DNA from: Sulfuritalea hydrogenivorans sk43H
Lineage (GTDB): Bacteria; Pseudomonadota; Gammaproteobacteria; Burkholderiales; Rhodocyclaceae
Reading direction: 5' to 3'
DNA length: 64,000 nucleotides
Assembly (NCBI RefSeq): GCF_000828635.1
Contig: NZ_AP012547.1
Span: 3,100,001-3,164,000 of the forward strand
Made by a program: the position numbers and the translations under genes. Positions 3,186 through 62,802 of the stretch are shown here, in pieces (within the stretch, counting starts at the first letter, position 1; every line of letters starts with the position of its first letter). The notes under the pieces are model-generated. The model ran no database searches, was not told the DNA's origin, and worked only from the letters and a program-made list of their open reading frames with translations.

Positions 3186-4390
3186 TTGAATTCAAGCTGC
3201 CCTCGCTGGGCGCCGACATGGACGAGGGCACCCTGCTCGAATGGAAAGTCGGCGTTGGCGACACGGTGAAGAAGGGCCAGGTGGTCGCCATTGTCGACAC
3301 CAGCAAGGCCGCCGTGGATGTCGAAAGCTGGCAGGAGGGCACCGTCCACCAATTGATTGCCGAGATCGGACAGAAGATGCCTGTCGGCACCGTGATGGCA
3401 TTGCTGCTCCAGGCCGGCGAGACCGCGCCTGCGGAAGTCGGCGCCGGCGCTACGGCGAAGCCGATGCCCAAGGCAGCGCCGGCGATGGCTGCCGCAGTTT
3501 CCGCCGCCGCAACCGCTGCGGCTCCTGTTGCCGCGTCGCGGCGCATGATTTCGCCCGCCGCGCGCAAGCATGCTGAGGAAAAGGGCGTCGACCTCGACCG
3601 CATCGCCGGCACCGGCCCGCATGGCGCGGTGACGCTGGAGGACGTCGAGAATGCGGCCGCGGCAAAACCACCGGCTGCGGCGGCGCCGGCCGCGAAGCCG
3701 GCCGACCGCGCCCCGGACAGAACCGCCGACATGCGCAAGACCATCGCCGCCGCGATGAGCCGTTCCAAGCGCGAGATTCCGCACTACTACGTCGCCGAGG
3801 ACATTCCGCTGGCGAAGGCGCTGGCGTGGCTGCAATCAACGAATGCGCAGCGCAGCATGGCCGAGCGCCTGCTGCCGGCCGTACTGCTGCTCAAGGCCGT
3901 TGCCGTCGCGCTGAAGCGCTATCCCGAGCTCAACGGCTATTTCCGGGACGGCGGCTTCGTGCCCATTGCCGCGATCCATCTCGGCGTGGCCATTTCCCTG
4001 CGCCAGGGCGGGCTGATCGCGCCGGCACTGCTCGATGCCGACGGCAAACCCCTGACGCAACTGATGCAGGGGCTGACCGACCTGGTCAAGCGCACGCGCG
4101 CCGGCTCGCTGCGCAGCTCCGAGATGAACGAGGCGACGATCACCGTGACCAATCTCGGCGACCAGGGATCGCAGTCGGTGTTCGGCGTCATCACGCCGCC
4201 GCAGGTGGCGCTGGTGGGCTTCGGCCGCGTCGCCGAACGGCCCTGGGCCGAGGATGGCGGGCTCAAGGTGCTGCCGGTGGTGACGGCCAGCCTCTCGGCC
4301 GACCACCGCGTTTCCGACGGCCATCGCGGCGCGCTGTTCCTGCGCGAACTGAATGACTTGCTGCAACGACCCGAGGAGCTGGACCGATGA
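3182..4390 (+). CDS. Dihydrolipoamide acyltransferase, E2 component
   Basis: 402 residues with complete E2 architecture: an N-terminal lipoyl domain with the lipoylated lysine at about residue 42 (DTSKAAVD), an Ala/Pro-rich linker, a peripheral-subunit-binding domain at about 121-157 ([16 protein letters not shown]), a second Ala-rich linker and the catalytic domain ending in the HxxxDG motif HRVSDG (His375, Asp379). It transfers the acyl group made by E1 to CoA. No E3 (lipoamide dehydrogenase) gene is in the operon portion seen here. The first linker contains a copy of the dispersed 24 bp element (3434-3457), translated as EVGAGATA. The 3' end overlaps the ACP gene start by 4 nt. Confidence 0.9.
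3434..3457 (+). repeat. Dispersed 24 bp element, diverged copy in E2 linker
   Basis: Matches the family consensus at 21 of 24 positions; the core reads AGTCGGCGCCGGC. It lies in the flexible linker of the E2 gene in sense orientation, encoding EVGAGATA. Confidence 0.55.
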
Positions 4391-4638
4391 ACGACGCCGA
4401 AATTCGCACGATCGCCCTGAGCACCCTCAAGTCCATTGCGCCGGAAGTCGAAACCGACGAGCTGCGTGGCGACCGCCCGTTGCGCAATCAGGTTGACCTG
4501 GACTCGATGGACTGGCTGAACTTCCTGCTCGGGCTCCACGAGAAACTCAAGGTGGACATCCCCGAGGCCGATTACGCCCGGCTGATCACCCTCGACGACG
4601 TGGTGAACTATCTGCAGAAGAAACTCGGCGCCGGATGA
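4387..4638 (+). CDS. Acyl carrier protein-like phosphopantetheine-binding protein
   Basis: 83 residues with the classic carrier-protein motif DLDSMDW; Ser40 is the expected 4'-phosphopantetheine attachment site. Acidic helix II and length fit a free-standing ACP. It is the last gene of the synthetase/E1/E2 operon and overlaps E2 by 4 nt, so it is co-expressed with an acyl-CoA-forming dehydrogenase rather than with fatty-acid synthesis genes. A role in receiving or delivering an acyl group linked to that complex is inference. It is not the housekeeping acpP, which normally carries the motif DSLD and sits beside fab genes. Confidence 0.8.
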   Translation: MNDAEIRTIALSTLKSIAPEVETDELRGDRPLRNQVDLDSMDWLNFLLGLHEKLKVDIPEADYARLITLDDVVNYLQKKLGAG

Positions 4639-4675
4639 AGGCGCCTGGCAGCAAATTCGCTTCCCGAAAATGCAC

Positions 4676-4834
4676 CTATCTGCCGGCGGCCGGCTTGCCC
4701 ATTGGTCTGGCGGACAGGCGGGAATGTATGGCGTCGATGATTTCCGCTTCACGCGGACTCAGCGAGAACAATCCGTAGCGTCGCCAGGCGCGGATCGCGC
4801 CGCGAAGTTCCTGGAAGGAAAATGATGGTTTCAT
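4676..4834 (-). CDS. Small protein of unknown function (52 aa)
   Basis: Unrecognised short reading frame beginning MKPSFSFQELRGAIRAW, rich in Arg/Ala with two predicted amphipathic helices. Support is modest: the ATG is preceded by AGGAGG at 7-8 nt spacing, and it lies opposite to both neighbours in an otherwise empty interval between the ACP gene and pcm. A longer in-frame upstream extension exists but lacks a better start. The size and helical RxxLxxLSPRE pattern are reminiscent of small basic proteins such as DUF1127 types, but no diagnostic motif is visible. Confidence 0.45.
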   Translation of the reverse strand: MKPSFSFQELRGAIRAWRRYGLFSLSPREAEIIDAIHSRLSARPMGKPAAGR

Positions 4835-4906
4835 TGTGCGCCTCCTGGGGAATCCATTTCCCGAAATGAACCAAGGGTAGCGAGTGTCCATTTGCGAGCA
4901 TATGGC

Positions 4907-5086
4907 ATGCCAAACACCCGTATCGATCTGAAACCGCGCCGATTCAAGGTCTTGCGAAAACCATTGAAAGTTTTCCACACTTCCGTGCGGCTGAAACGGC
5001 AAGAAGTGCTGGAAAATCAGCCGATATCGCCGGCGACACAACCGGTTGCCGACGTGTTGGCATCCCCGCTGAAGGAAACCGCGTGA
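4907..5086 (+). CDS. Possible small basic protein upstream of pcm
   Basis: 59-codon frame starting MPNTRIDLKPRRFKVL, very rich in Lys/Arg in its first half, ending in a GTGA overlap with the start of pcm. That overlap is the main argument for reality, because translational coupling is common here. There is no clear Shine-Dalgarno sequence and no family was recognised. It could equally be untranslated leader of pcm. Confidence 0.25.
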   Translation: MPNTRIDLKPRRFKVLRKPLKVFHTSVRLKRQEVLENQPISPATQPVADVLASPLKETA

Positions 5087-5757
5087 GCTTCGGCAACAAG
5101 ACGGACCCGGATTGCCTGCTGGACGAAATTCGCGAGGAACTCCGGGAGACGCAGTTGCTTACCGGTCGCCCGGTTCTCGAACAGCGGGTAATGGAAGCCT
5201 TGCGGCAGACCCCGCGCGACGAGTTCGTGCCGCATGAACTGCGCCATGTCGCCTATGCCAACCGCCCGCTGCCGATCGGTCACGGGCAGACCATTTCGCA
5301 ACCCTACATCGTGGCCCTGATGACCGACCTGATTCATCCCCGGCCTGGCGACGTGGTGCTCGAGATCGGCACCGGCTCCGGCTATCAGGCCGCGATCCTG
5401 TCGCAACTGGTGAAGCGGGTCTATTCCATGGAAATCATCGAGGAGCTTGCCGCGGACGCCGGCGCACGGCTGCGGCGACTGGGCTACGACAATATCGAAG
5501 TGCGTGCGGGCAACGGGCGCCTGGGCTGGCCCGAACATGCGCCTTACGACGCGATCATCGTCACGGCGGCCACCAGCCGCATTCCCCACGCGCTGATCGG
5601 GCAGCTAAAACCCGGCGGCACCCTGGTCATCCCCATCGGCAGCCAGCATGCGGCGCAGGAACTGCTGGTCGTAAACAAGCGCGGGGACGGAAGCACTGAA
5701 GAAAAGCATGTCCTGCCGGTGGTCTTCGTTCCCCTGACCGGAACCGGCGAAGACTGA
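5083..5757 (+). CDS. pcm: Protein-L-isoaspartate O-methyltransferase
   Basis: 224-residue repair methyltransferase that methylates isoaspartyl residues in aged proteins using S-adenosylmethionine. The family signature FVPHELRHVAYANRPLPIG, the TISQPYIVALMTDLI segment and the SAM-binding motif VLEIGTGSGYQAAIL are intact. The start is GTG, overlapping the end of a possible small upstream ORF. In many proteobacteria pcm lies near surE and nlpD; that context is absent here. Confidence 0.92.
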   Translation: MSFGNKTDPDCLLDEIREELRETQLLTGRPVLEQRVMEALRQTPRDEFVPHELRHVAYANRPLPIGHGQTISQPYIVALMTDLIHPRPGDVVLEIGTGSGYQAAILSQLVKRVYSMEIIEELAADAGARLRRLGYDNIEVRAGNGRLGWPEHAPYDAIIVTAATSRIPHALIGQLKPGGTLVIPIGSQHAAQELLVVNKRGDGSTEEKHVLPVVFVPLTGTGED

Positions 5758-5852
5758 ACGGTGCACCGGGACGCCCGGCCTGCCGCAGTTCGCGGGCATG
5801 GTTGTATCATTGCCGATCAAGCCGAATTTGCTTCATTGACAGGAGAAAGATC

Positions 5853-6089
5853 GTGGCCTCACATGAGAACAAGACAAAAGTGACGATTTTGACCGGGTCC
5901 TACCGCATCAAGGGCTACATCGATCTCTTGCCCGGAGCGCGCGTGACGGATTTCATCCTTGAATCGAAAAATTTCGTCGTGGTCATGGATGCGGAAGTCA
6001 GCACCGCCGACGCAGGCAGCCGCCAGGTGCTGCTGGCCCCGTTCCTGGACGTGAATCGGGACCACATCCAGATCATCACCGTTTGCTAG
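5853..6089 (+). CDS. Small conserved protein, DUF6812-like
   Basis: 78 residues from a GTG start with AGGAGA 12 nt upstream. The sequence (VTILTGSYRIKGYIDLLPGAR, then VTDFILESKNFVVVMDAEV) resembles small proteins grouped as DUF6812; that assignment is from memory and function is unknown. The alternating hydrophobic pattern suggests a small beta-barrel-like fold. The gene stands alone between pcm and the alcohol dehydrogenase gene. No signal peptide or membrane segment. Confidence 0.6.
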   Translation: MASHENKTKVTILTGSYRIKGYIDLLPGARVTDFILESKNFVVVMDAEVSTADAGSRQVLLAPFLDVNRDHIQIITVC

Positions 6090-6154
6090 GCAGCAGCAAG
6101 GCGTACCGGCTGACCCTGTCCGATGCGAGGCACTGACGGCAAGGGCAGTCGCGG

Positions 6155-7156
6155 ATGAAGACCCGGATGCGCGCCATGATGCTCGACCGGCCCGGCACGC
6201 CGCTGCGCATGGTCGACCTGCCGGTGCCGCGGCCCGGCCCCGGCGCCCTCCTGATCGAGGTGGAGGCCTGCGGCGTGTGCCGCACCGACCTGCACCTGAT
6301 CGATGGCGAATTGCCGAATCCCCTGCTGCCGGTGATTCCCGGCCATGAAATCGTCGGCTGCGTCGCCGCCATCGGCGCGGACGTCCACGGCTTCCGCAGC
6401 GGCCAGCGCGTCGGCGTGCCCTGGCTGGGCTGGACCTGCGGCACCTGCCGCTTCTGCAGCAGCGGCCGCGAAAACCTCTGCGATGCGGCGCGCTTCACCG
6501 GCTACCAGATCCACGGCGGCTACGCCGAATACACCGTGGCCGATGCCCGCTACTGCTTTCCGCTGCCCGACGACGGCGACGCCGCGCAACTGGCGCCGCT
6601 GCTTTGCGCCGGCCTGATCGGCTACCGCGCCCTGCGCATGGCCGGCACATCGAATCGTATCGGCATATACGGTTTCGGCGCCGCCGCGCATATCGTCGCC
6701 CAGGTGCTGAAATTCCAGGAGCGGGAGTTCCATGCCTTCACCCGCCCCGATGACACGGCCAGCCAGGACTTCGCCCACCGCCTCGGCGCCGTCTGGGCCG
6801 GCAGCACCGACCAGCAACCGCCGGCACTGCTCGATGCCGCTCTGATCTTCGCCCCTGCCGGCCCGCTGGTTCCGGCGGCACTGCGCCATCTGGAAAAAGG
6901 CGGCAGCGTGGTTTGCGCGGGCATCCACATGAGCGAAATTCCCGCCTTCCCCTACGAGATCCTCTGGGGCGAACGCAGCATCCGTTCGGTTGCCAACCTG
7001 ACCCGCCGCGACGGACTGGAATTCCTCGAACTCGCGCCGCGGATACCCATTCGTACGGAGGTCCATCCCATGCCGCTGGCGCAGGCCAACGAAGCGCTGG
7101 AGCAATTGCGCCAGGGAAAGTTCCAGGGAGCAGCGGTACTGACGATGAACGGCTAG
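6155..7156 (+). CDS. Zinc-dependent alcohol dehydrogenase family protein
   Basis: 333-residue medium-chain dehydrogenase/reductase. Catalytic zinc ligands are visible in CGVCRTDLHL and PGHEIVG; the structural zinc loop has four cysteines in WTCGTCRFCSSGRENLCD; the nucleotide-binding loop is GIYGFGAAAH. These indicate NAD(P)-linked oxidation or reduction of alcohols and aldehydes. The length and the C-terminal segment fit the AdhA-like zinc-binding group. It converges with the Lon-like gene and overlaps its end by 4 nt; neighbours give no substrate clue. Confidence 0.85.
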   Translation: MKTRMRAMMLDRPGTPLRMVDLPVPRPGPGALLIEVEACGVCRTDLHLIDGELPNPLLPVIPGHEIVGCVAAIGADVHGFRSGQRVGVPWLGWTCGTCRFCSSGRENLCDAARFTGYQIHGGYAEYTVADARYCFPLPDDGDAAQLAPLLCAGLIGYRALRMAGTSNRIGIYGFGAAAHIVAQVLKFQEREFHAFTRPDDTASQDFAHRLGAVWAGSTDQQPPALLDAALIFAPAGPLVPAALRHLEKGGSVVCAGIHMSEIPAFPYEILWGERSIRSVANLTRRDGLEFLELAPRIPIRTEVHPMPLAQANEALEQLRQGKFQGAAVLTMNG

Positions 7157-9585: not shown

Positions 9586-9746
9586 GACAAATACACCCGG
9601 ATTCCTGCGGCTCGTTGTCAGTCCATGCCGACGCGGCGCAAACCGGCATGTCGGCGATGGTGCATGCCCACGTCTTTACGGCGTCGGCTATCCGGGATTA
9701 TGCCGCCGATTCACGCACGGATTGCATGCGCCGCATTCGGCGGGAA

Positions 9747-9818: not shown

Positions 9819-9821
9819 AGC

Positions 9822-12310: not shown

Positions 12311-12317
12311 ACCAGTC

Positions 12318-15433: not shown

Positions 15434-16618
15434 TCACAGCATCGCTGCGGCGCGATAGTGCCGTATCGCCAGCGCCGACTCTTCGAGCTGGTCCAGCAGT
15501 TGCGCCAATTCGACATGCGCGGCGCGCGATGGCGCGATGGCCAGCGCGGCTTCGAGATAGCTGCGCGCCTTGCCCCATAGCTGCTGCTGGCGGCACAGCC
15601 GTCCCAGCGTCAGCAACAGGGCGCCGTCGCGCGGCATGCGCTGCAGCCATTTTTCGGCTTGCGCGATACGCCCGAGAACATCGCCTGCGGGCTCACCGGG
15701 CTTGCCGCACTCGCCGTAGGCCAGCACCAGTCCGGCATCCCAGCGTTCATCCAGCGCGTCTTCGATCACGCGCTGGGCTTCGCGGCAATCGCCGGCTGTC
15801 GAGAGCGCACGCGCTGTTTCCAGCGCCAGTGCAGCTTCGGCGCGGTCTGCGTCATCGAGTTCGTGCCAGTAGCGCATCAATCCGGAAGGGTCGTCACGCA
15901 GGGCACGCAGGGCTTCGCGCACGGCGCGGCTGCGAATCGGCGCCGCCTGTTCGGCGGTCAGCGCCTGGTGCTTTTCGAGTTGACGGACCAGGCGCGCCAC
16001 TTCGCGCCAGTTGCCCAGTCCCTGCTCGGCACGCAGGCTGAGGCGCAGGGCCGCGATGTGCCTCCCCTGACGCGCGGCAAGCTGTTGCAGGGCGTCGCGG
16101 GCGTCGTCGAAGCGCCGCTCTTCGAGGGCGAATTCGGCTTCGGTCATCAGGCGCGCCGCCCGCAACCCGGCGCCGTCATGCCCGCGAACGAGCGCCGCCC
16201 AATGCGCGATGCGCCCAGCATCGCGCAGGGCATGCGCGGCGCGCCAGCCCGCCAGCGCGAGCATGCCGGCACCGGCCTGATCCGGCCCGGCCTTTTCGAC
16301 GCAGCGAATGGCGTGCCCGTAACGTCCTTCCTGCAACAGGCGCCATGCGTCGCGCAAAGCGACGGAAGCCTTTTCCTGCTGTCGCCGGCGGCGGAACTCC
16401 GCCACGGCGCGCGGCAGTCCGAGGGTATGGCTGACCGCGCGCGCCAGCAGGTAAATCGCGAAGAATCCCGCGATGCAGAGCAGCAGGAACAGGTTGAGCG
16501 AAACCTCCGCACGCCAGGGCGGCAGCACCAGCAGCACGTAACCCTCGTTGTAGCGGGCGGCCAGGGCCAGCCCCACCGCAAGCGCGGCGAGAGTCAGCAA
16601 CCAGAACACGGCGCGCAT
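15434..16618 (-). CDS. hemY: HemY heme-biosynthesis membrane protein
   Basis: 394 residues with two transmembrane segments near the N-terminus (about 5-25 and 40-62), the HemY signature RYNEGYVLLVLPPWRAEVSLN, then a long TPR-like helical region. This is the proteobacterial HemY linked to late heme synthesis or heme delivery, not protoporphyrinogen oxidase of the same name in Gram-positives. It lies 8 bp after hemX in the order hemD-hemX-hemY. A copy of the dispersed 24 bp element (15459-15482) forms part of its last codons, read as ESALAIR. Confidence 0.9.
   Translation of the reverse strand: MRAVFWLLTLAALAVGLALAARYNEGYVLLVLPPWRAEVSLNLFLLLCIAGFFAIYLLARAVSHTLGLPRAVAEFRRRRQQEKASVALRDAWRLLQEGRYGHAIRCVEKAGPDQAGAGMLALAGWRAAHALRDAGRIAHWAALVRGHDGAGLRAARLMTEAEFALEERRFDDARDALQQLAARQGRHIAALRLSLRAEQGLGNWREVARLVRQLEKHQALTAEQAAPIRSRAVREALRALRDDPSGLMRYWHELDDADRAEAALALETARALSTAGDCREAQRVIEDALDERWDAGLVLAYGECGKPGEPAGDVLGRIAQAEKWLQRMPRDGALLLTLGRLCRQQQLWGKARSYLEAALAIAPSRAAHVELAQLLDQLEESALAIRHYRAAAML
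15459..15482 (-). repeat. Dispersed 24 bp element, in hemY
   Basis: Contains the core CCAGCGCCGACT on the plus strand. It lies near the 3' end of reverse-strand hemY in sense orientation and is translated as ESALAIR. Confidence 0.7.
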
Positions 16619-19742: not shown

Positions 19743-19766
19743 CGCCGTGTCGCCAGCGCCGACTTT
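19743..19766 (-). repeat. Dispersed 24 bp element, hemC-ppc gap
   Basis: Near-consensus copy, one base from the consensus (GTG where most have GTA), ending CCAGCGCCGACTTT. It sits between divergent hemC and ppc, ~26 bp before the chosen ppc start. Confidence 0.75.
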
Positions 19767-22620: not shown

Positions 22621-23586
22621 TCAGCCCGCGCTTGCACCCGGCCGCTGGGCCAGCGATGCGTTCTCGACCCAGCGCTTGATGCGGTTGGCGTCGCCGATGC
22701 GGGTCAGCCTGCCCCAGGAATCGAGCAGCACGATGATGGTCGGCTTGTTGTTGAGCCAGGCCTGCATCACCAGGCATTTCCCGGCCTCGTTGATGTAACC
22801 GGTCTTGGACAGGCCGATCTCCCAGGTCGGACTCTTGACCAGGGTATTGGTGTTGCGGAAGTGCTGAGGGCGACCGGCGATGCTGAACTCGCCTTCCGAC
22901 GTCGTCGAAAACTCGCGGATCAGCGGGTACTGGTGTGCGGCATCGACCATTTTCGCCAGGTCGCGCGGGCTCGATACATTGGCAGCCGTCAATCCGGTGG
23001 CGTCCTGAAAGCGCGTATCGGCGAGGCCCAGTGCCTGCGCCTTCTGGTTCATCGCGGCGATGAAGGCATCGCGCCCGCCCGGATAGTGGCGCGACAGGGC
23101 CGAGGCGGCACGGTTCTCGGAAGACATCAGGGCCAGGCGCAGCATTTCCTCGCGCGCCAGATGCGTGCCGACCTTCAGACGCGAGCGCGTTCCCTTGAGA
23201 ACGTCGACATCCTCTTCGTTGATTACCAGGGTTTCGGTCAGGTCGGGCTTGCCGTCGAGCACGACCATCGCTGTCATCAGTTTGGTAATCGACGCGATCG
23301 GCAGGATCGCGTTCGGGTTCTTTTCGAACAGGATCGCGCCGGTGGTCTGGTCCAGCACCAACGCCGCAGAGGACTGCACGGCCAGATGCCGGGCGTCGTC
23401 AAGCGATGTCACGCGATGCGCTGACTTGGCACGCAGCGTGTGCTTGACCCGGGCCAGCTTTGCTGCGCCAGGTGCCTTCTTTTTTGCCGCAACGGTTTTC
23501 TTTTTGGTGGCGGCCGCGACGTCAGTCGGCGTCACGCCAGCGCCGACTATTGCGGCGGCCAACAACACCAGTAGTGCTTTCTTCAT
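22621..23586 (-). CDS. pbpG: D-alanyl-D-alanine endopeptidase, PBP7/8 family
   Basis: 321 residues with a signal peptide (MKKALLVLLAAAIVGAG), a Lys/Ala-rich linker (about 25-50), and an S11 peptidase domain with all three active-site boxes: SITK (Ser99, Lys102), SEN and KTG (LSKTGYINEAG). It cleaves peptidoglycan cross-links in the periplasm. A copy of the dispersed 24 bp element (23527-23550) lies within the signal-peptide region, giving IVGAGVTPTD. Confidence 0.9.
   Translation of the reverse strand: MKKALLVLLAAAIVGAGVTPTDVAAATKKKTVAAKKKAPGAAKLARVKHTLRAKSAHRVTSLDDARHLAVQSSAALVLDQTTGAILFEKNPNAILPIASITKLMTAMVVLDGKPDLTETLVINEEDVDVLKGTRSRLKVGTHLAREEMLRLALMSSENRAASALSRHYPGGRDAFIAAMNQKAQALGLADTRFQDATGLTAANVSSPRDLAKMVDAAHQYPLIREFSTTSEGEFSIAGRPQHFRNTNTLVKSPTWEIGLSKTGYINEAGKCLVMQAWLNNKPTIIVLLDSWGRLTRIGDANRIKRWVENASLAQRPGASAG
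23527..23550 (-). repeat. Dispersed 24 bp element, in pbpG signal peptide
   Basis: Core CCAGCGCCGACT intact, upstream half diverged. Sense orientation relative to pbpG, translated VGAGVTP. Confidence 0.65.
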
Positions 23587-27167: not shown

Positions 27168-27191
27168 CGCCGTGTCCCCAGCGCCGACTTT
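27168..27191 (-). repeat. Dispersed 24 bp element, maeB-pckG gap
   Basis: Near-consensus copy (GTGTCC variant) ending CCAGCGCCGACTTT, located 38 bp upstream of the maeB start in the divergent maeB-pckG interval. Confidence 0.75.
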
Positions 27192-29256: not shown

Positions 29257-29257
<1 letters not shown>

Positions 29258-29280
29258 CAGTCGGCGCTGGGACCACGGCG
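29257..29280 (+). repeat. Dispersed 24 bp element, after pckG
   Basis: Begins at the last base of the pckG stop codon; core AGTCGGCGCTGG on the plus strand followed by GACCACGGCG. It lies between pckG and the co-oriented aminotransferase gene. Confidence 0.7.
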
Positions 29281-36938: not shown

Positions 36939-37703
36939 CTACCCCGCAAGCTTGAGCAGGGTCTTGACCTGCGCCCACTGTCGACGACTGACGGGCAGGC
37001 GTTCCGTGGTTCCGTCCAGGATCACCTGCCAGTGCGCCTCTCCGTCGCCTTCGTCAGCCGCCCGCTCCACTCCTGTAACCACGGCGCGCGCCACCAGGCA
37101 GTTGCGATGGATGCGCAGGAAGCGCTCGCTGAACTCCGCCTCAAGATGGACCAGCGACTCCTCCAGAAGATACTCGCGCCCCGCGGTATGCGCAGTGACG
37201 TATTTTTGTTCCGCCTTCAGGTAAAGAATTTCCGCGACCGGCACCAGAAGAATGCGGCCGCGCTCCAGGCAGGACAGGTTTTGCCGTATCGCCAGCGCCG
37301 ACTTTTCGAGGCGAACCGCATCGTCGGCATGGCGCCTTGCCTTGCGCAAGGCATCGGCCAGACGGGTGGCGCGTACCGGCTTGACCAGATAATCCAGCGC
37401 GGCCAGTTCGAAGGCCTGCACCGCATATTGGTCGAAGGCGGTGACGAAGATCACGGCCGGCGTGCTCGGCAACCGCGCCAGATGGCGGGCCAGCTCCACG
37501 CCATCCATGCCGGGCATGCGAATATCGATCAGCGCCACATCGAGGTCACCGGCCTGCGCCCGCTCCAGCGCGGCAAAGCCGTCCGCGGCCTCGGCCACCA
37601 CCGTGCTCGGCACCTCGGCGGCGATGTCGCCCAGCAAGTCGCGCAAACGCGCACGCGCCGGAGCCTCGTCATCGACCAGCAGAAGGCGCAAGGCTTCACT
37701 CAT
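36939..37703 (-). CDS. algR: LytTR response regulator, AlgR-like
   Basis: 254 residues: receiver (LLLVDDEAPARARLRDLL; phosphoacceptor in VALIDIRMPGMDG) and C-terminal LytTR DNA-binding domain (ERGRILLVPVAEILYLKAEQKYVTAHT, RIHRNCLVA). It pairs with the adjacent LytS-type kinase, whose 3' end it overlaps by 4 bp. A copy of the dispersed 24 bp element (37282-37305) lies in the inter-domain region, read as EKSALAIR. Confidence 0.92.
   Translation of the reverse strand: MSEALRLLLVDDEAPARARLRDLLGDIAAEVPSTVVAEAADGFAALERAQAGDLDVALIDIRMPGMDGVELARHLARLPSTPAVIFVTAFDQYAVQAFELAALDYLVKPVRATRLADALRKARRHADDAVRLEKSALAIRQNLSCLERGRILLVPVAEILYLKAEQKYVTAHTAGREYLLEESLVHLEAEFSERFLRIHRNCLVARAVVTGVERAADEGDGEAHWQVILDGTTERLPVSRRQWAQVKTLLKLAG
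37282..37305 (-). repeat. Dispersed 24 bp element, in algR linker
   Basis: Consensus at all but the first base of the 24 bp. In sense orientation within algR, encoding KSALAIR between the receiver and LytTR domains. Confidence 0.75.
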
Positions 37704-41528: not shown

Positions 41529-42427
41529 CATCGGGGTTGGGCGCCGTCGAAGTTGATGCCATTGCGGCGGCGATTGCCAAGCGCAGCGGAACCTCCTTCA
41601 CCCCTTCATCGGTCAGCCCGGTCGGCGGCGGCTCGATTCATCGCGCTTGGCATCTCACAGACGGCGTCCGCCACTATTTTGTAAAAGTCGGCGCTGGCGG
41701 GACGGCGCCGATGTTCGCCGCCGAAGCGCTGGCGCTGCAAACGATTTCGCATGCCGCCGTAGTGCGGACGCCGACTGTCGTCGCCATGGAGAGCACGGAA
41801 ACCCTGGCGTTCCTGGTGCTGGAACATCTTGAACTGGCCGCGCTGGATCAGCCAGGCGGAGCCCGGCTCGGCAGCGCCCTGGCGCAACTGCATCGCATCA
41901 CCGGCGACGCCTTCGGCTGGGACGGGGACAATTTCATCGGCGCCACGCCGCAGATCAATACACCCCATCGCAGCTGGCCGCATTTCTTCGGCGAACGCCG
42001 CCTGCGACCGCAACTGCAACTCGCGCTGCAAAACGGCATGGACAAGGCGCTGGTGGCAAAAGGCGACGCGATCATCGAGCGCATCGGCGGCCTGTTCATC
42101 AGCTATCAGCCGCTGCCCAGCCTGCTGCACGGCGATCTGTGGTCGGGCAACGCGGCGCAATGCGACGACGCGCCGGTGATCTTCGACCCGGCCAGCTACT
42201 ACGGCGACCGCGAAACCGACATCGCCATGGCCGAACTGTTCGGCGGCTTTCCCACCAGCTTTTTTGCCGCCTATCGCACGGCGTGGCCGCTCGACTCAGG
42301 CTATGAAGCGCGCAAGCCGCTCTACAACCTGTACCACATCCTGAATCATTTCAACCTGTTCGGAAGCGCCTACCTGGGGCAGGCGCAACGCATGATCGAA
42401 CGGCTGCTGAAAGAACTCAGACGCTAA
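41525..42427 (+). CDS. Fructosamine kinase family protein
   Basis: 300 residues using a TTG start that overlaps the kinase stop (TTGA); no ATG lies at the right place. Family motifs: PVGGGSIHRAWHL, YFVKVGAG..MFAAEALAL, LVLEHLEL, NFIGATPQINTPHRSWPHFFGERRL, LLHGDLWSGNAA and FDPASYYGDRETDIAM. It phosphorylates ketosamines on glycated proteins to destabilise them (deglycation). A copy of the 24 bp element (41684-41707) encodes the VKVGAGGTA stretch right at the conserved FVK lysine. Confidence 0.88.
   Translation: MTSGLGAVEVDAIAAAIAKRSGTSFTPSSVSPVGGGSIHRAWHLTDGVRHYFVKVGAGGTAPMFAAEALALQTISHAAVVRTPTVVAMESTETLAFLVLEHLELAALDQPGGARLGSALAQLHRITGDAFGWDGDNFIGATPQINTPHRSWPHFFGERRLRPQLQLALQNGMDKALVAKGDAIIERIGGLFISYQPLPSLLHGDLWSGNAAQCDDAPVIFDPASYYGDRETDIAMAELFGGFPTSFFAAYRTAWPLDSGYEARKPLYNLYHILNHFNLFGSAYLGQAQRMIERLLKELRR
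41684..41707 (+). repeat. Dispersed 24 bp element, in fructosamine kinase
   Basis: AAAGTCGGCGCTGGCG on the plus strand then GGACGGCG; sense orientation, encoding KVGAGGTA adjacent to the ATP-binding-lobe lysine. Confidence 0.7.
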
Positions 42428-44547: not shown

Positions 44548-45112
44548 ACCATCCCGAGGCCAGCGCCGCTTCATTGGCCGTCACGTCGATGCCGCCGACG
44601 GATTCCAGCACGTCTTCGAACACCACATCGAGGCGCGTCGCGACATGGCGCGTGAGCGGATTGAGAACACGCTTCCAGCCGGCTTCGCCGCGCCGCAGGA
44701 ACTTGTCGAAGACCAGCAACGTCCCGCCCGGCTTCAACACGCGCACCGCTTCGGCAAGACAGAGAGTCGGCGCCGGCACCACGGCGAGGATCAGATGCAA
44801 CACCGCCACATCGAAGCTGGCATCATGAAACGGCAAGCGCTGCGCGTCGCCGCGCAAGGGCGTGAAGTGCAGGCCGGAGGCACGCGGGCGGGCACGCGCG
44901 AGCATCGCGGCAGTCAGATCGAGTCCGACATAGCGATGCTGGGCCGGCAAGTGGGGAAGGTCGAGACCGGTGCCGACTCCCATCAACAACACATCGCGCG
45001 GCGGCTCGTCGACCAGCGCGGCCAGGCTGCGCTTGCGCGCGCCACGCGTGGCGGCGGTCAGAAACGCATCGTAAAAAGGCGCGACCAGCGTGTAGCTGTG
45101 CTTGAGGCTCAA
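44513..45112 (-). CDS. Class I SAM-dependent methyltransferase
   Basis: 199 residues from a TTG start that overlaps the apaG stop (TTGA). It starts LSLKHSYTLVAPFYDAFL; motif I is VLLMGVGTGLDLPHLP, followed by YVGLDLTAAML, GDAQRLPFHDASFDVAVL and VLKPGGTLLVFDK, a UbiE/phospholipid-methyltransferase-like pattern. The substrate is uncertain: phospholipid N-methylation is possible for the YxxxAPFYD group. A diverged copy of the 24 bp element (44763-44786) lies inside in antisense orientation. Confidence 0.82.
   Translation of the reverse strand: MSLKHSYTLVAPFYDAFLTAATRGARKRSLAALVDEPPRDVLLMGVGTGLDLPHLPAQHRYVGLDLTAAMLARARPRASGLHFTPLRGDAQRLPFHDASFDVAVLHLILAVVPAPTLCLAEAVRVLKPGGTLLVFDKFLRRGEAGWKRVLNPLTRHVATRLDVVFEDVLESVGGIDVTANEAALASGWFRLIRLTKPVF
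44763..44786 (+). repeat. Dispersed 24 bp element, diverged copy in methyltransferase
   Basis: Five mismatches to the consensus; AGTCGGCGCCGGC then ACCACGGCG. It is the only coding copy found in antisense orientation to its gene. Confidence 0.4.
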
Positions 45113-48905: not shown

Positions 48906-49625
48906 ATGAGAAGCAAACAATCCGGTTTTACCCTGGTCGAAATCGCCATCGTGCTGGTCATCATCGGCCTGCTTCTGGGCGGCGTGCTGAAAGGCCAGGA
49001 GTTGATCAACAGCGCGAAAGTGAAAAATCTTGCGACCGACTTCCGCAACGTCCCGCTGTTCATTTACGGTTATCAGGACAAGTATCGGGCATTGCCTGGT
49101 GACGACGGGCAAGCCGCCGCTCACGTCGCAGGTGCGACCGTGGCTACAACCCCGGCTGCCGCACCGGCTGCCCGTAGCAACGGCGTGATCGAGGGTGCGT
49201 GGGACTCAACAACGCAAACCGACGAATCCTTCCTGTTCTGGCAGCATGTCCGACTCGCCGGCCTAGCTGCAGGTCCAACTGCCGTTGCCGACACCAACTA
49301 TCAGCCGCGGAATGCGGATGGTGGCATTATCGGCATCACCACCAATGACAACGCCGCTCCCTACATTGCCGGCATGAGGGGCACTTATCTCGTCTGCACC
49401 CAGGGCGTCCTTGGCAAGTATGCACGACAGCTCGACACGACGATGGATGACGGCTGCCCCAATACGGGCTCGATCCGGGTCGTGCCTGGAACCCCCGCCG
49501 GAACCACCACTGGCAACGTGTCGGCCGGTTTGGTGCCGATCGCGGCGGGCGCAGTCTGCCCGATCACGGCTGGCGGACCAACCTTGGATGATTCGACGTC
49601 CTACACGGTCTGCATGACGATGTAA
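48906..49625 (+). CDS. Type IV pilin-like prepilin
   Basis: 239 residues from ATG at 48906, with GGGGGAGA a few bases upstream; an in-frame ATG at 48900 is the alternative. Class III signal with cleavage after Gly in KQSG/FTLVEIAIVLVIIGLLLGG; Glu5 of the mature form is present. The globular part has the LPGDD motif seen in a family of betaproteobacterial prepilin-like proteins and a C-terminal Cys pair (VCPITAG..YTVCMTM). It is a single-gene unit with its own promoter and terminator. It may be a major pilin or a secretion pseudopilin; sequence does not decide. Confidence 0.85.
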   Translation: MRSKQSGFTLVEIAIVLVIIGLLLGGVLKGQELINSAKVKNLATDFRNVPLFIYGYQDKYRALPGDDGQAAAHVAGATVATTPAAAPAARSNGVIEGAWDSTTQTDESFLFWQHVRLAGLAAGPTAVADTNYQPRNADGGIIGITTNDNAAPYIAGMRGTYLVCTQGVLGKYARQLDTTMDDGCPNTGSIRVVPGTPAGTTTGNVSAGLVPIAAGAVCPITAGGPTLDDSTSYTVCMTM

Positions 49626-49676: not shown

Positions 49677-51650
49677 CTGCTTGCCGCGCAGCAGCGCCTC
49701 CTCCCCGGCCGTTACCGCCGCCGCGTTGCCGATCAGCACCACCACGTCGCCCTCGATCAGTTCCAGCAGCGGCTCCAGCTTCAGGGCGCGCTGCGAGCGA
49801 CGGCGAATCGCCGTAACACCAGCGCCGACTCTCGCCAGATCGATCTCACCGACCCGGCGGCCAATGGCCCAAGTGCCGGGCGTCAGGGTCACGGCATGCA
49901 GGCGCGGCTGGTCGGCGTCGGCCAGATGGGCGCCGGCGTCGGTGGCGCCGTGGAAGAAGCCGCGCAGCAGCGAATAGTGCTGTTCGCGCATTTCGCGCAG
50001 GCGCTTGATCACCTTGTGCATAGGTATGCCTGACAGCGCCAGCGCGTGGGTGGCCAGCATCACGCTCGATTCGAGGGCTTCCGGCACCACTTCGGCGGCG
50101 CCGGCGGCATAGAGCTTTTCGACATCGTCCTGCTCCCGTGCCCGCGACACGATGGCGACATCGGGACGCAGTTCCCTGACGCGGTGGATCACCCGCAGCG
50201 CGGCGTCGATGTCGGCGAAGGTGATGATCACCACGCTGGCGCGCGACAGGCCGGCCGCCAGCAGGGTTTCCTTCTTCGACGAATCGCCGTAGGACACTGG
50301 CTCGGCCGCCATGCTGGCTTCGCGCACGCGCTCGGGGTCGAGATCGAGCGCCATGAACGAGATGCCCTCGGCTTCGAGGAAGCGCGCCAGATGCTGGCCG
50401 GTGCGCCCGTAGCCGCAGAGGATCGCATGCTTGTCGGTGGTCAGCGACTGGGCCGCGAGTTGCGTCAGTTGCATCGAGCGCAGCAACCATTCCGAAGCGA
50501 CGAAGCGAAACACCAGCCGGTCGGAGAAATGCACGATCAGCGGCGCCAGCAGGAGCGACAGCACCATTGCCGCCAATACCGGCTGCAGCGTCGCGGCGTC
50601 GAGCAGATTCACGTCCCCGGCCCGCGCAAGAATCACGAAGCCGAATTCGCCACCGGCGCACAGCCACAAGCCGCTGCGCATGGCAGTGCCCGGCGAACTT
50701 CCCAGCAGCCTTGATGCGACGCCGATGATGACCAGCTTGAACGCCACCAGCGCCGCCAGGATGCCCGCCACCAGAATCCATTGGCCGGCGATCTGCGGCA
50801 CATTGAGGCGCATGCCGATGGCCACGAAGAACAGGCCCAGCAGCACGTCGCGAAAGGGTTTGATGTCTTCTTCCACCTGATAGCGGTATTCGGTTTCGCC
50901 GATCAGCATGCCGGCGGTGAAGGCGCCCAGGGCCAGCGACAGGCCCGCCAGTTCGGTCAACCAGGCGAGGCCGAGGGTGATCAGCAGCACGTTGAGCATG
51001 AACAGTTCCGCGGACTTGCGGCGCGCCACCAGATAGAACCAGGCCGAGAGCATGCGCTGACCGATGAACAACACCAGCGCGAGCAGCACCATGGCCTTGA
51101 ACGCCGCCAGCAGCAGGGCTTCGGCCATCACCTCGAGCGGTTGCGACAACGCCGGGATCATCACCAGCAGCGGCACCACGGCGATGTCCTGGAACAGCAG
51201 GACGCCGATCACTTCGCGGCCGTGCGGTGCGTCGAGTTCGCCGCGCTCGGTCAGCAGCTTGGACAGCATGGCCGTCGATGACATCGCCAGCGCGCCACCC
51301 AGCGCAAGGCCGGCCAGCCACGGAATGCCGGCGACCCGGGCAAGCAGGGTCGCCACCAGCACGGACACGACAACCTGCAGCAGGCCAAGACCGAACACGA
51401 TGCGCTTCATGCTGTACAGCCGGGCCAGCGAAAATTCGAGGCCGATGCTGAACATCAGGAACACCACGCCGAACTCGGCCAGGTGTCGCGTCTGCTCGGT
51501 ATCCGGCACCCAGCCCGCCGCATGCGGCCCCAGGGCCGCACCCACCAGCAGGTAGCCCATGATCGGCGGCAGGCCGAGCATGCGGAAAATCACCACGACG
51601 ACGACAGCGGCGGCAAGCAGCAGCAGGATGAGGGGCAGAGTCTCTGTCAT
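49671..51650 (-). CDS. Monovalent cation:proton antiporter-2 family (KefB/YbaL type)
   Basis: 659 residues. About 12 membrane helices (Na_H_exchanger, residues ~5-385), a TrkA-N Rossmann domain (AILCGYGRTGQHLARFLEAE) and a TrkA-C domain near the end (LIEGDVVVLIGNAAAV). It exports K+ or Na+ in exchange for H+, gated by NAD(H) or glutathione adducts in KefB/C relatives. A copy of the 24 bp element (49809-49832) lies in the TrkA-C region, read LARVGAGVTAIRRRS. Confidence 0.9.
   Translation of the reverse strand: MTETLPLILLLLAAAVVVVVIFRMLGLPPIMGYLLVGAALGPHAAGWVPDTEQTRHLAEFGVVFLMFSIGLEFSLARLYSMKRIVFGLGLLQVVVSVLVATLLARVAGIPWLAGLALGGALAMSSTAMLSKLLTERGELDAPHGREVIGVLLFQDIAVVPLLVMIPALSQPLEVMAEALLLAAFKAMVLLALVLFIGQRMLSAWFYLVARRKSAELFMLNVLLITLGLAWLTELAGLSLALGAFTAGMLIGETEYRYQVEEDIKPFRDVLLGLFFVAIGMRLNVPQIAGQWILVAGILAALVAFKLVIIGVASRLLGSSPGTAMRSGLWLCAGGEFGFVILARAGDVNLLDAATLQPVLAAMVLSLLLAPLIVHFSDRLVFRFVASEWLLRSMQLTQLAAQSLTTDKHAILCGYGRTGQHLARFLEAEGISFMALDLDPERVREASMAAEPVSYGDSSKKETLLAAGLSRASVVIITFADIDAALRVIHRVRELRPDVAIVSRAREQDDVEKLYAAGAAEVVPEALESSVMLATHALALSGIPMHKVIKRLREMREQHYSLLRGFFHGATDAGAHLADADQPRLHAVTLTPGTWAIGRRVGEIDLARVGAGVTAIRRRSQRALKLEPLLELIEGDVVVLIGNAAAVTAGEEALLRGKQK
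49809..49832 (-). repeat. Dispersed 24 bp element, in antiporter gene
   Basis: CGCCGTAACA then CCAGCGCCGACT on the plus strand; sense relative to the antiporter gene, encoding VGAGVTA. Confidence 0.7.
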
Positions 51651-56056: not shown

Positions 56057-56104
56057 GCGACTTTCCCAACGTCTCCTCCTCCGGCCCCGCAAAAGGGCTG
56101 GTTT

Positions 56105-56145: not shown

Positions 56146-56178
56146 GGAAGCCTCGGAGCGCAGCTTTCACCCGCGCCA

Positions 56179-56202
56179 AGTGTCGGCGCTGGCAATACGG
56201 CG
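56179..56202 (+). repeat. Dispersed 24 bp element, after phaP
   Basis: GTCGGCGCTGGCAATACGGCG on the plus strand with the adjacent A/G positions changed; intergenic, between the phaP terminator and an inverted repeat. Confidence 0.7.
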
Positions 56203-56215
56203 ATCACCCCATTTT

Positions 56216-56354: not shown

Positions 56355-56372
56355 CAACTGCTTTTTCCAGGA

Positions 56373-57539: not shown

Positions 57540-57742
57540 GGTCGCTAGTATGGCCGATCGGAGCCTGCGGTGGAATACCGCAGAAAGCGCCAAAAGACGC
57601 TGTGCACCGGATCAGGGCATCCGTAAATATGCATCGCCTTCGGTATCGGTGCCATCGGGCTTGCGGTTAGAATCGCCTGACTATTTCTCGCCTGATGAAG
57701 CCCCCGGCCTGAGTGTTGCATGGCCGGCTATTTTCCCCCGAC

Positions 57743-58906: not shown

Positions 58907-58915
58907 CGCCGCTTT

Positions 58916-58939
58916 CGCCGTATCGTCAGCGCCGACTTC
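58916..58939 (-). repeat. Dispersed 24 bp element, GGDEF-FKBP gap
   Basis: CGCCGTATCGTCAGCGCCG and then ACTTC; two mismatches from the consensus. It lies between convergent genes. Confidence 0.75.
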
Positions 58940-58957
58940 TAACGGCGCTTCACTGGC

Positions 58958-59302
58958 TCAATCCAGTCCGAGCAGTTCCACCTCGAAAACCAGCGTCGCA
59001 TTGGGCGGGATCACGCCACCCGCGCCGCGCGCGCCGTAGCCGAGTGCCGGCGGAATGGTGAGTTTGCGGGTGCCGCCGATCCTCATCCCCTGCACGCCCT
59101 CGTCCCATCCGGCAATGACGTGCCGGGCGCCAAGCGGAAACTCGAAAGGCTCGTTGCGGTCCTTGCTCGAATCGAATTTGGAACCGTTCGTGAGCCATCC
59201 GGTGTAGTGCACCGAAACCGTCTGCCCGACGCGGGCTTCCTCGCCTTCGCCGACGATCAGTTCTTCGATGACAAGCCCGCTGGCCGTGGTGGTCTGACTC
59301 AT
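58958..59302 (-). CDS. FKBP-type peptidyl-prolyl cis-trans isomerase
   Basis: 114 residues, a single cytoplasmic FKBP domain without a signal peptide: [40 protein letters not shown] and [29 protein letters not shown]. It catalyses proline isomerisation in protein folding. Followed on the same strand, but upstream in genome order, by the PAS-GGDEF-EAL gene 36 bp away. Confidence 0.94.
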
Positions 59303-59338
59303 TGCCTTGCTCCGGATGTTGGTTGAACGATGTGCCGA

Positions 59339-61924
59339 TTATGCCTGAGAGCGCTGATTCGGCAGCGGACTGAATATCCCGTCGGCGAGTGTCGGCGGCA
59401 ACGGGCGCGAGAACAGGTAGCCCTGGAATTTTTCGCAGCCGAGGCCGCGCAGGATGTCCAGCTGCTCGGCGGTTTCGACGCCTTCGGCCAGCGTATCGAG
59501 GCCCAGGCTCCGGGCCAGGCCGATGATGGCGGTAACGATGGCCGCATCTTCCGGATCGACGGTGAGGTCGCGCACAAAGCCCTGGTCGACTTTCAGCTTG
59601 TGCACCGGGAAACGCTTGAGGTAACTGAGGCTGGAATATCCGGTGCCGAAATCGTCGATCGCCAGGCGCACACCCATGGCGGCGATCTCCTCGAGCTTGT
59701 CCCGGGTTTCGTCGATGTCCTGCATCAGCGTCGTCTCGGTAATCTCCAGTTCCAGCAGCCGGGCCGGCTGCCCCGTCTCCAGCAAAATGCGTCGCAGGGT
59801 CTCGACCAGGTCCTTCTGCCGGAACTGGCGCGGCGAGAGGTTGACCGAGATGGGCAGCAGCGGACGCCCCTCCTGCTGCCATTCGCGATTCTGCCGCAGC
59901 GCTTCGGCCAGCACCCACTCCCCGACCGGCACGATGAGCCCGGTTTCTTCCGCGATCGGAATGAACTCGCCCGGCTCGATCAGTCCGCGCTCCGGATCGC
60001 TCCAGCGTACCAGCGCCTCCATGCCGCATACGGTTCGCCGCGGCCAGTCGATCAAGGGCTGGTAATGCAGCAGCAGTTGCCCTCCATCGATGGCCTGGCG
60101 CAGTCTGTTCTCCAGCGTGAAGAAATGCTCGGCCTGCTCGTTCATCGCCCGGGCGAAGAACTGGAAGTTGTTGCGCCCGACCGCCTTGGCGTGATACATC
60201 GCAGTATCGGCGCTCTTCATGAGTCCGAAAACCTCGTCGCCGTCATCGGGAAAGATGCTGATGCCGATCGACGGCGTCGCATGCAGCTGATGGCCATCGA
60301 TGCTTGCCGCCGCCCCCAGCGCGCCAAGAATCTTCTCCGCCACCTGCACCGCATCGTCGGGCGACGATACCTCGTGCAGCACGATGACGAATTCATCGCC
60401 GCCCAGGCGCGACACCGTATCGACCGCCCGCACGACGCTCGTCAGGCGACTGGCCACATGCTTCAGCAGTTCATCGCCGATGGCGTGGCCCAGGGTGTCA
60501 TTGACGTTCTTGAAGCGATCGAGATCGAGGAACATCACCGCGACGCGATGCCGGCCGCGCAGCGCCTGGGCCAACGCCTGCTCCAGCCGGTCATGCAGCA
60601 GCGTGCGATTGGGCAAGCCGGTCAGGCTGTCATGGTGGGCGATATGCCAGATGCGCTGCTCGGCCTGCATCCGCTCGAATACCTCTTCCTGCAACTGGGT
60701 GTTGGCGCTTGCCAGCTCGGCGGTACGCTCGACCACGCGCTGTTCGAGCTCTTCGTGGGCGCGCAGCAAGGCTTCCTCCGCCTGATGCCGCTCGGTGACG
60801 TCCTCGAAAATCCAGGTCATGTCGATGCTGTCGGCCTGGCCGACAACCCGGCGTCCGGTACTGCGTACCCAGAACGCGTGGCCATCCTTGTGCCGCACCC
60901 GGTTCTCGCCGATATATGTCCCGCCGGCCATGACCACCGACAAGACCGCGGCGCCATTGCGCTGGTAGTCCTCCTCGTTGAGATAGAACACCCGCGTCGA
61001 ACGACCCGCCAGTTCATCCTGCTGGTAGCCGAAGATCTCGGCCAGCCTGCGATTGCAGCGTTGCACCATGCGATCCCGCGCGAACAGGATGCCCACTGCC
61101 GCATTGTCGAAAATCAGTTGCTGTTCGTCGAAGGCCTGACGCGCACGCTCTTCCGTTTCGCGCGTCGCGGTAAAGTCCTCCGTCAGCCAGACCGAACCGG
61201 CATGCGGGTTGCCCGGATCAAAGGCGCTGCCGCTGACGCGCAGCCACGTTTGCGAACCATCCCGGCGCACAAACAACTGCTCGCGGCGATGCACCCTGCC
61301 GGCGGCGAACTCGGAATAGACCTGTTCGCCGGTGCGCTGGAACTCCTCCTCGGAGTTGAACAGCCGCCGCGACGACTGGCCCAGCAGCGAGCCGGTCGGC
61401 AAATCGAATATCTCCTCGAAGCGGCGATTGCAGCGCACGAAGATGCGGTTGCGCACCACGGCGATGCCGGCCGAGGCCGTATCCAGGATGGCCGACAGCT
61501 CGCGCGTGCTGCGCTCGAGGGCATCGATCATCAGGCGGTCTTCGGCGATGTCCTCGATCATCCACAGGGTGCCGTCCCGGGGATGATGGGGATCGACCGC
61601 CTTGGCCGACACGCGGCACCAGAACAGGCTGCCGTCCTTGCGCTTGAGCTGCGTCTCGGTGCGGAAGGGATGTCCCGCCGCCAGCACCGGACCTGCCTCG
61701 CGCCCCAGGGCTGAATAGGCTTCCTGGTCGGCATAGAGAATCAGCGCGGGCTGGTCGACGAACTCGCTCAGGCTGTAGCCGAACATCTCGGCGCACAGGC
61801 GATTGGCCTGGATCAGGCGCCGATTGTGGGAAAACAGGATGCCGATCGTGGCATTCTCGAAAATCGCGTTGAGTTCGAGCGCGGCCTTCTTCGGCGGCAG
61901 GGAAAGCGGGCCGCTGCTCATCAT
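59339..61924 (-). CDS. PAS-PAS-PAS-GGDEF-EAL c-di-GMP signalling protein
   Basis: 861 residues from ATG at 61924. Three PAS sensor domains (starting [42 protein letters not shown]), a coiled coil ([19 protein letters not shown]), then GGDEF ([10 protein letters not shown] with I-site RAVD) and EAL ([54 protein letters not shown]). Both catalytic motifs look intact, so it could make or degrade c-di-GMP. No membrane helices, so cytoplasmic sensing, perhaps of redox or light through PAS cofactors. The start overlaps the upstream dehydrogenase gene stop by 4 nt. Confidence 0.93.
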
Positions 61925-62802
61925 GCCGGGTCCGTTGCGCTGCCGGCTTCGAGCACCCGCAGCAGTGAAGCAGTGTCTTCCCTGCCCCAGCCCCGCGCCA
62001 TGACCGCATTCAATTGCTGTCCGACTGCAGCTGACACCGGCAACGGTGCGCCAATCCGGGTTGCCTCTTCCATCAGCAACGCATAGTCCTTGTGGTGCAG
62101 CCGCGCTTCGACGCCGGGTGCGAATTCGCGGCTTGCCATGCGCCCGCCGAACACGTCCAGCACGCGCGAGCCGGCCGAGCCGTGCAGCATCGCGGCACGC
62201 ACCCTGGCGAAGTCGACGCCCGAAGCGGCTGCCAATCGTGCCGCTTCCGCCGCGGCCTCGATTGCCGCCACCATCACCATCTGGTTGCAGGCCTTGGCGA
62301 CCTGGCCGGCGCCGGCTTCGCCCACCCGCACAACGGTCTTGCCCAGCACCTCGAAGAACGGCTGGAGGCGTGCCGCCAGCGCCGACTTTCCGCCCCACAT
62401 GATGGCCAGCGAAGCGTTCTGCGCGCCGACACTGCCGCCGGAAACCGGGGCATCGACGAAATCAACGGCCTGCGCGGCATGCCTTGCCGCGATGCGGCGC
62501 GCCGCCGACGGCGCGATGGTCGAGAAATCGACATGCAGGCTGCCCGGCGCAAAACCCTGTGCCAGGCCCTGCGGCCCGAAAGCCAGCCCCTCGACATCGG
62601 CACTGCCGGTGACGTTGGTGAAAACCACTGTGCAGTGGCGCGCAAGCTCGGCCGGCGAGTCCCGCCACAGCGCGCCCTGCCCGATCAGCGCGGCGGCCGA
62701 CTCCCGCCGCCGCGACCAGACCGACAACGCATGCCCCGCGCGCAACAAATGCTCCGCCATCGGGCGGCCCATGGCGCCAAGGCCGATGAAGCCCAGTTGC
62801 AT
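61921..62802 (-). CDS. NAD(P)-dependent beta-hydroxyacid dehydrogenase, paralog 1
   Basis: 293 residues from ATG at 62802. Rossmann start [20 protein letters not shown], substrate-binding [19 protein letters not shown], and the catalytic Lys region [13 protein letters not shown]. Member of the 3-hydroxyisobutyrate/2-hydroxy-3-oxopropionate reductase family. It is a tandem paralog of the next gene, only 5 bp away. A copy of the 24 bp element (62367-62390) encodes KSALAAR. Confidence 0.85.
62367..62390 (-). repeat. Dispersed 24 bp element, partial, in dehydrogenase paralog 1
   Basis: Core CCAGCGCCGACTTT intact, upstream half shortened. Sense orientation, encoding GKSALAAR. Confidence 0.6.

What the first reader, a model, noticed from the sequence alone, without database searches (positions are those of the whole stretch)
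3434..62390. A 24 bp element repeated at least 11 times in 64 kb, in genes and between them
Eleven sites share the exact 10-mer CAGCGCCGAC, and most extend to a 24 bp consensus whose first ten bases are about CGCCGTATCG: 15459, 19743, 23527, 27168, 29257, 37282, 41684, 49809, 56179, 58916 and 62367. Two more diverged copies are at 3434 and 44763. A fixed 12-mer is expected well under once by chance in this length. The copies are single, not tandem, and spaced about one per 5-6 kb, a density like that of DNA uptake signals, Chi-like sites or binding sites of a nucleoid protein. I do not recall a described element with this sequence.
Basis: partly seen in the sequence, partly recalled or inferred. 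Interest (0 to 1): 0.82.

Follow-up and report, generated by a model that had tools for sequence, protein, structure and literature searches.

The report
Genome-wide DNA-uptake-like signal with dialects
A 24-letter DNA word is scattered hundreds of times through the genomes of a group of environmental bacteria, and close relatives use their own spelling of it, which looks like a password for recognising and taking up DNA of their own kind.

Summary
The window holds 15 copies of a sharply bounded ~24 bp motif, CGCCGTVYCGCCAGCGCCGACTYT. Its core CCAGCGCCGACT occurs 448 times in this 3.80 Mb genome (225 forward, 223 reverse) against 3 for the reversed control. It is abundant (68-548 copies) in 21 of 199 sampled family genomes, in six genera. 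Some close relatives without it carry private dialects: CAGCACCAACTGG (326 in one genome, 0-3 in 26 others), GCGTCGACTTTT (245 against 0-3) and GGCTGACTTTG (40-97 in three genomes of one genus, 0-6 in 25 others). Where an orthologous site lacks the motif, the alignment shows no insertion-sized gap (16 of 16 pairs). Two inverted pairs form long hairpins between convergent genes.

This behaves like the DNA uptake sequences of Neisseria and Pasteurellaceae but differs in sequence; my literature searches found no report of it. Best reading (0.72): an uptake-sequence system in a third bacterial family. Not shown: uptake itself, and the receptor. A ComP-family pilin is present but equally common in motif-free relatives. 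Against: the motif also occurs in phage-type contigs.

The parts
3245..3268 (-). motif copy (CACCGTGTCGCCAACGCCGACTTT), inside a predicted gene
   Evidence: matrix score 31.6
3434..3457 (-). motif copy, A to G variant of the core, inside a predicted gene
   Evidence: score 32.2
15459..15482 (+). motif copy inside a predicted gene
   Evidence: score 35.5
19743..19766 (+). motif copy, nearest to consensus in the window
   Evidence: score 42.5
23527..23550 (+). motif copy inside a predicted gene
   Evidence: score 31.9
27168..27191 (+). motif copy inside a predicted gene
   Evidence: score 35.6
29257..29280 (-). motif copy overlapping the end of a predicted gene
   Evidence: score 27.6
37282..37305 (+). 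motif copy inside a predicted gene
   Evidence: score 37.6
41684..41707 (-). motif copy inside a gene; several relatives align here without a gap and without the motif
   Evidence: score 36.3; alignments
41755..41778 (+). weak motif copy, inverted relative to 41684
   Evidence: score 20.4
44763..44786 (-). motif copy; called intergenic by my simple gene finder
   Evidence: score 28.6
49809..49832 (+). motif copy inside a predicted gene
   Evidence: score 35.5
56179..56202 (-). intergenic motif copy
   Evidence: score 33.9
58916..58939 (+). intergenic motif copy
   Evidence: score 37.7
62366..62389 (+). motif copy inside a predicted gene
   Evidence: score 30.2

Best explanation
The motif is a DNA uptake sequence. 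A surface protein of the type IV pilus / competence machinery prefers DNA that carries it, so DNA of the same clade is taken up and recombined more often. Over time this bias fills the genome with copies by substitution and gene conversion, in both orientations and wherever the protein sequence tolerates it. When the receptor's preference drifts, the whole set of copies follows, which gives dialects. Shown here: the repeat, its genome-wide spread, strand balance, gap-free replacement at orthologous sites, enrichment between genes, biased reading frame, hairpin pairs and at least three genus- or species-level dialects. Inferred: that the reader of the motif is an uptake receptor, that cells take up this DNA preferentially, and that drive by uptake bias built the distribution.
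For: (1) Counts: 448 against 3 reversed-control in this genome; 21 of 199 family genomes with 68-548 copies, the other 178 with 0-21. (2) Private dialects: CAGCACCAACTGG 326 in G014 and 0-3 in 26 others; GCGTCGACTTTT 245 in G045 and 0-3 in 26 others; GGCTGACTTTG 97, 43, 40 in the three g66 genomes and 0-6 in 25 others. G014 and G045 keep the same 24 bp frame. (3) Not inserted: of 55 site-relative pairs covering 20 own sites, 39 share the motif and 16 lack it with indels <=3; none has a gap >=15. Sites are better conserved than flanks when shared (0.85 against 0.75) and worse when one side lacks the motif (0.62 against 0.705). (4) 34 of 96 sites are intergenic although predicted genes cover 84% of the sample. 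(5) Frame bias: 41 of 60 intragenic copies use two of six frames, encoding VGAGxTA or AVSPAPT. (6) Two inverted pairs between convergent genes, with 25 and 23 bp stems. (7) Balanced strands. (8) 0 sites in the 8 of 92 5-kb bins with GC below 0.60, and 0 in 60 kb that begins with a Tn7-like element. (9) ComEC found in all 21 canonical-motif genomes; 11 pilin-like genes, one in the ComP_DUS Pfam family. Published passages describe the same traits for DUS/USS: point-mutation rather than insertion origin and scarcity in new DNA (PMC7811141), inverted pairs as terminators (PMC2397512), dialects (PMC3630211).
Against: No uptake, binding or transformation data exist for these bacteria in what I saw. 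The ComP_DUS family is in 185 of 199 family genomes with or without the motif, and is not detected in G138 or G045, which carry the motif or a dialect. ComEC is not detected in G149, a dialect genome 85% complete. A ComM-type gene in this strain appears cut by a Tn7-like element. Density (one per 4.8 kb) is lower than in Neisseria or Haemophilus. The two hairpins lack a clear T run.
Confidence: 0.72

Rival explanations
1. Binding site of a chromosome-organising or nucleoid protein, kept by selection across the genome, with dialects caused by coevolution of that protein.
For: Genome-wide, roughly random spacing (gap CV 0.93 against 0.87-1.14 for random placement); sharp 24 bp site; coordinated dialects also fit a binding protein; presence in phage-type contigs is no obstacle.
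Against: Copies rewrite protein sequence inside genes and are missing from low-GC bins and from a 60 kb stretch with a Tn7-like element, which a chromosome-wide organiser would not predict. No clustering by replichore was seen over the 1.65 Mb examined.
Confidence: 0.15
2. A short mobile element (REP or MITE type) spread by a transposase.
For: Sharp edges and very similar copies; five copies 316-385 bp apart in viral locus L381.
Against: No insertion-sized gap in 55 own-side pairs. In one search, of 19 own-only or relative-only pairs, 18 had indels <=3 and one a 6 bp indel. Single copies are not palindromic (fold -3.8 kcal/mol), and 60 of 96 lie inside genes.
Confidence: 0.04
3. Chi-like or KOPS-like oriented recombination or segregation signal.
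For: Dense, genome-wide.
Against: No polarity: 225 to 223 over the genome and 95 to 100 in the first 1.65 Mb from dnaA.
Confidence: 0.03
4. Transcriptional regulator or terminator element.
For: 34 of 96 sites are intergenic; 12 of 32 intergenic sites with genes on both sides lie between convergent genes.
Against: 60 of 96 sites are inside genes, on either strand, far too many for a regulon; only two close inverted pairs outside genes in 464 kb.
Confidence: 0.04

Closest known systems
DNA uptake sequence (DUS) of Neisseriaceae with its receptor ComP
   Same: Hundreds to thousands of single copies on both strands, in and between genes, inverted pairs as hairpins, scarce in acquired DNA, several dialects among relatives (passages of PMC2397512 and PMC3630211). 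Both contain GCCGT near one end.
   Different: 24 bp instead of 10-12 bp; lacks the conserved CTG core reported for all Neisseriaceae dialects, except that the g66 dialect contains GGCTGACTTTG; lower density; other family; receptor unknown.
Uptake signal sequence (USS) of Pasteurellaceae
   Same: Arises by point mutation rather than insertion and is under-represented in new DNA (passages of PMC7811141); extended motif with a T-rich end.
   Different: Unrelated sequence (USS inner core GCGGT, passage); gammaproteobacteria; density about one per kb.
REP / MITE repeats
   Same: Short, numerous, sharply bounded.
   Different: Not inserted, not palindromic singly, largely intragenic.

Membership tests
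DUS/USS-type uptake sequence (kind) | Short motif hugely over-represented on both strands | tested here: met
   225/223 against 2/1 reversed; 96 against 4 in 464 kb
DUS/USS-type uptake sequence (kind) | Arises by substitution or recombination, not insertion | tested here: met
   16 of 16 motif-less pairs with indels <=3; 18 of 19, the other with 6 bp
DUS/USS-type uptake sequence (kind) | Favours permissive sites (between genes, tolerant reading frames) | tested here: met
   34 of 96 intergenic against 16% of bases; 41 of 60 intragenic copies in two frames
DUS/USS-type uptake sequence (kind) | Lineage dialects | tested here: met
   Three reciprocal dialects; a fourth in G023 is only suggestive
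DUS/USS-type uptake sequence (kind) | Rare in recently acquired DNA | tested here: inconclusive
   0 in 60 kb beside a Tn7-like element and 0 in 8 low-GC bins, but present in viral contigs
DUS/USS-type uptake sequence (kind) | Competence machinery present | tested here: inconclusive
   ComEC and pilins found; ComEA, DprA, PilQ and PilT not searched; a ComM-type gene appears interrupted
DUS/USS-type uptake sequence (kind) | Motif raises DNA uptake | not testable with these tools
   needs an uptake assay
Neisseriaceae DUS proper | CTG core of the 10-12 mer DUS | tested here: not met
   Consensus of this genome has none, so it is not filed as a DUS dialect
Neisseriaceae DUS proper | ComP receptor | tested here: inconclusive
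   PF16732 hit 43.9 bits, but the family is in 185 of 199 genomes irrespective of motif
REP/MITE | Inserted element with empty sites | tested here: not met
Chi/KOPS | Polarity relative to replication | tested here: not met
   95 to 100 in the first 1.65 Mb

The most novel reading that the evidence does not exclude
The motif is a clade-wide self-marking code read by a protein outside the known DUS/ComP and USS systems, serving self/non-self discrimination in a free-living environmental family, and copied by its phages, which would gain entry or recombination with host DNA by carrying the password.
Probability: 0.25. Interest if true: 0.92.

Novelty: new variant of a known kind. Interest (0 to 1): 0.8.

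Why it matters
Sequence-specific DNA uptake is described for species of two families, Pasteurellaceae and Neisseriaceae (passage of PMC7811141), largely host-associated. A third lineage, free-living and with a different, longer, GC-rich word and several dialects, would show that such passwords evolve repeatedly. It would give a new comparative test of whether uptake bias alone fills genomes with signals, and a way to find the receptor by comparing sister genera with different dialects (G008 and G014).

Tried and rejected
Rejected: transposed repeat (gap-free alignments); oriented Chi/KOPS signal (strand balance); chance. Considered and not supported as the specific receptor: the ComP_DUS-family pilin at 3023878 (family present in 185 of 199 genomes; its homologues look alike in genomes with and without the motif).

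Led nowhere or weak: a first expectation-maximisation run with a low threshold drifted into codon periodicity in all 30 genome samples and was discarded. The second, stricter run still drifted on simulated sequence for this genome (53, 61, 1 and 67 simulated sites) and once for G029 (24), G045 (12) and G114 (7), so I rely on the fixed matrix and on reciprocal whole-genome counts. In one search it found 3 sites in 40 kb of G008 and 1 in 40 kb of G066, although G066 has 43 copies of the g66 word genome-wide. G023 looked like a mixed or decaying dialect (16 sites, 0 in simulations), but its de novo top words are not the motif. G029, a close relative, shows no motif in 100 kb (2 sites). Other close relatives without one were sampled thinly (G065 17.8 kb, G051 18.8 kb, G124 and G097 40 kb each), and G189 and G135 only by the 12-mer count. 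The largest motif gap by exact 12-mer (62.9 kb) is not itself unusual under random placement (p 0.10). A script that gave a row to two groups failed and was rerun.

Literature: 'DNA uptake sequence' with 'Rhodocyclaceae', 0 papers; 'uptake sequence' with 'Rhodocycl', 0; 'uptake signal sequence' with 'Azoarcus', 2 on genomic islands, listing only; the string CAGCGCCGAC, 27 papers, 20 titles seen, none on uptake by title; broader lists. The library holds open-licence papers only.

Full report
WHAT IS THERE. The window holds 11 exact copies of CAGCGCCGAC (shuffle mean 0.75, largest 4). Aligned exact-core copies (49 from 464 kb of this genome) show a motif with sharp edges: a weak A/T lead, CGCCGT, two variable bases (not T; then C or T), CG, CCAGCGCCGACT, and a pyrimidine-T-pyrimidine tail. 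A weight matrix finds 96 sites scoring >=14 in 464 kb against 4 in a Markov simulation, with a clean gap between true sites and background. Of the 96, 26 match all 21 key positions and 79 have two mismatches or fewer. Fifteen lie in the window.

GENOME AND RELATIVES. The genome is a single contig of 3,802,648 bases with the window at 3,100,001-3,164,000. That this is Sulfuritalea itself is my inference. The 12-mer occurs 225 and 223 times on the two strands; reversed control 2 and 1. Among 199 family genomes, 21 in six genera (g1, g8, g19, g38, g46, g64) have 68-548 copies and the other 178 have 0-21. Among 300 genomes of the order, the extended pattern is abundant only in four family members (58-380 copies); 13 others have 1-4 copies and 283 none.

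DIALECTS. In a GyrB tree of 50 rows, genomes with the canonical motif need five changes of label (shuffled mean 16.3), because close relatives such as G045 (87% GyrB identity) and G014 interrupt them. Sampling those relatives showed why: they carry the same 24 bp frame with altered letters. De novo counting, without any matrix, gives AAAGTCGACG 18 times in 120 kb of G045 (0.64 expected), AGCACCAACT 18 times in 92 kb of G014 (0.47) and AAAGTCAGCC 8 and 5 times in 40 kb each of G114 and G066 (0.11 and 0.05). Whole-genome counts are reciprocal: 326 in G014 against 0-3 in 26 others; 245 in G045 against 0-3 in 26 others; 97, 43 and 40 in the three g66 genomes against 0-6 in 25 others. Counting dialects lowers the changes needed on the tree to four, or three with G023, as would fit one origin and a few losses within one supported clade of 33 rows (95/94). 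Seven rows of that clade showed neither the motif nor a dialect, some sampled thinly.

HOW COPIES ARISE. Own stretches were aligned to relatives. In 55 pairs covering 20 own sites, 39 share the motif and 16 lack it; none of the 16 has an indel above 3 bases at the site. An earlier smaller set gave 37 shared, 14 own-only and 4 relative-only without larger gaps, and one relative-only with a 6 bp indel. Several motif-less partners match the flanks at about 80% but the site at about 54% (for example L018 and L073): a block rewritten in place, keeping the reading frame and changing amino acids. A Neisseria study reports DUS too divergent from homologues for single point mutations and infers recombination (abstract passage, PMC2397512). 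Shared sites are better conserved than their flanks (0.85 against 0.75).

WHERE COPIES SIT. With a simple codon-usage gene finder, 60 of 96 sites are inside genes, 34 between genes and 2 at gene ends, although genes cover 84%. Of 60 intragenic copies, 26 read antisense as VGAGxTA and 15 read sense as AVSPAPT. Two pairs in inverted orientation, 27-28 bases apart between convergent genes, fold into 25 and 23 bp stems (-56.6 and -50.1 kcal/mol) whose arms share the same departures from consensus; neither is followed by a clear T run. Spacing is otherwise near random. Sites rise with GC (Spearman 0.37 over 92 bins) and are absent from all 8 bins below 0.60 GC. The longest exact-match gap, 458.5-521.4 kb, has no matrix site in the 60 kb sampled. 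It opens with TnsA-, TniB- and TniQ-family genes and a Mu-type transposase next to the C-terminal part of a ComM-type (Mg-chelatase-like) gene; the far end of that element was not located. Another long gap (163-197 kb) proved to hold five variant sites.

MACHINERY. ComEC is found in 194 of 199 family genomes, including all 21 canonical-motif genomes, but not in G149 of g66. This genome has 11 pilin-like genes. One, beside a FimT/GspH-type gene, belongs to Pfam ComP_DUS (43.9 bits, cut-off 27.3), but the family is in 185 of 199 genomes and not detected in motif-bearing G138 and G045. So it is a candidate, not an identified receptor.

AGAINST. Beyond the selecting copy these loci hold 0.071 sites per kb against 0.149 in named genome loci. 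By eye on translated frames some look like host DNA and others like phage (no family search was run). This fits prophages that picked up the signal, or host contamination, but it is not what a pure self-DNA signal predicts.

CONCLUSION. The anatomy and evolution match uptake sequences of DUS/USS kind, with a word different from both. It is therefore filed as working like an uptake sequence and as a likely new variant of that kind, not as a member of the Neisseria DUS or Pasteurellaceae USS. Uptake and receptor remain to be shown.

Noticed in passing
G147 stretches L173, L174 (same family, genus g62): A different 10-mer, GTCGACCGTG, occurs 12 times in 40 kb (0.41 expected), some in perfect palindromes by eye; none in 40 kb of G112 of the same genus or in the window. 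Possibly another species-level signal.
   Followed up: partly
this genome, 460002-465367 (L287): Tn7-like transposition genes (TnsA, Mu-type transposase, TniB, TniQ families) abut the C-terminal part of a ComM-type gene; further along are E2/ThiF/JAB-type genes.
   Followed up: partly
viral loci L352-L471: Phage-type contigs carry the motif; L381 has five copies 316-385 bp apart.
   Followed up: partly
G257:C3, G234:C29, G419:C24, G304:C34: Genomes of other families with two motif copies within about 4-8 kb: transferred segments or contamination.
   Followed up: no
window 48906-49625 (+): A 239 aa pilin-like protein with only the N-methylation motif recognised.
   Followed up: no
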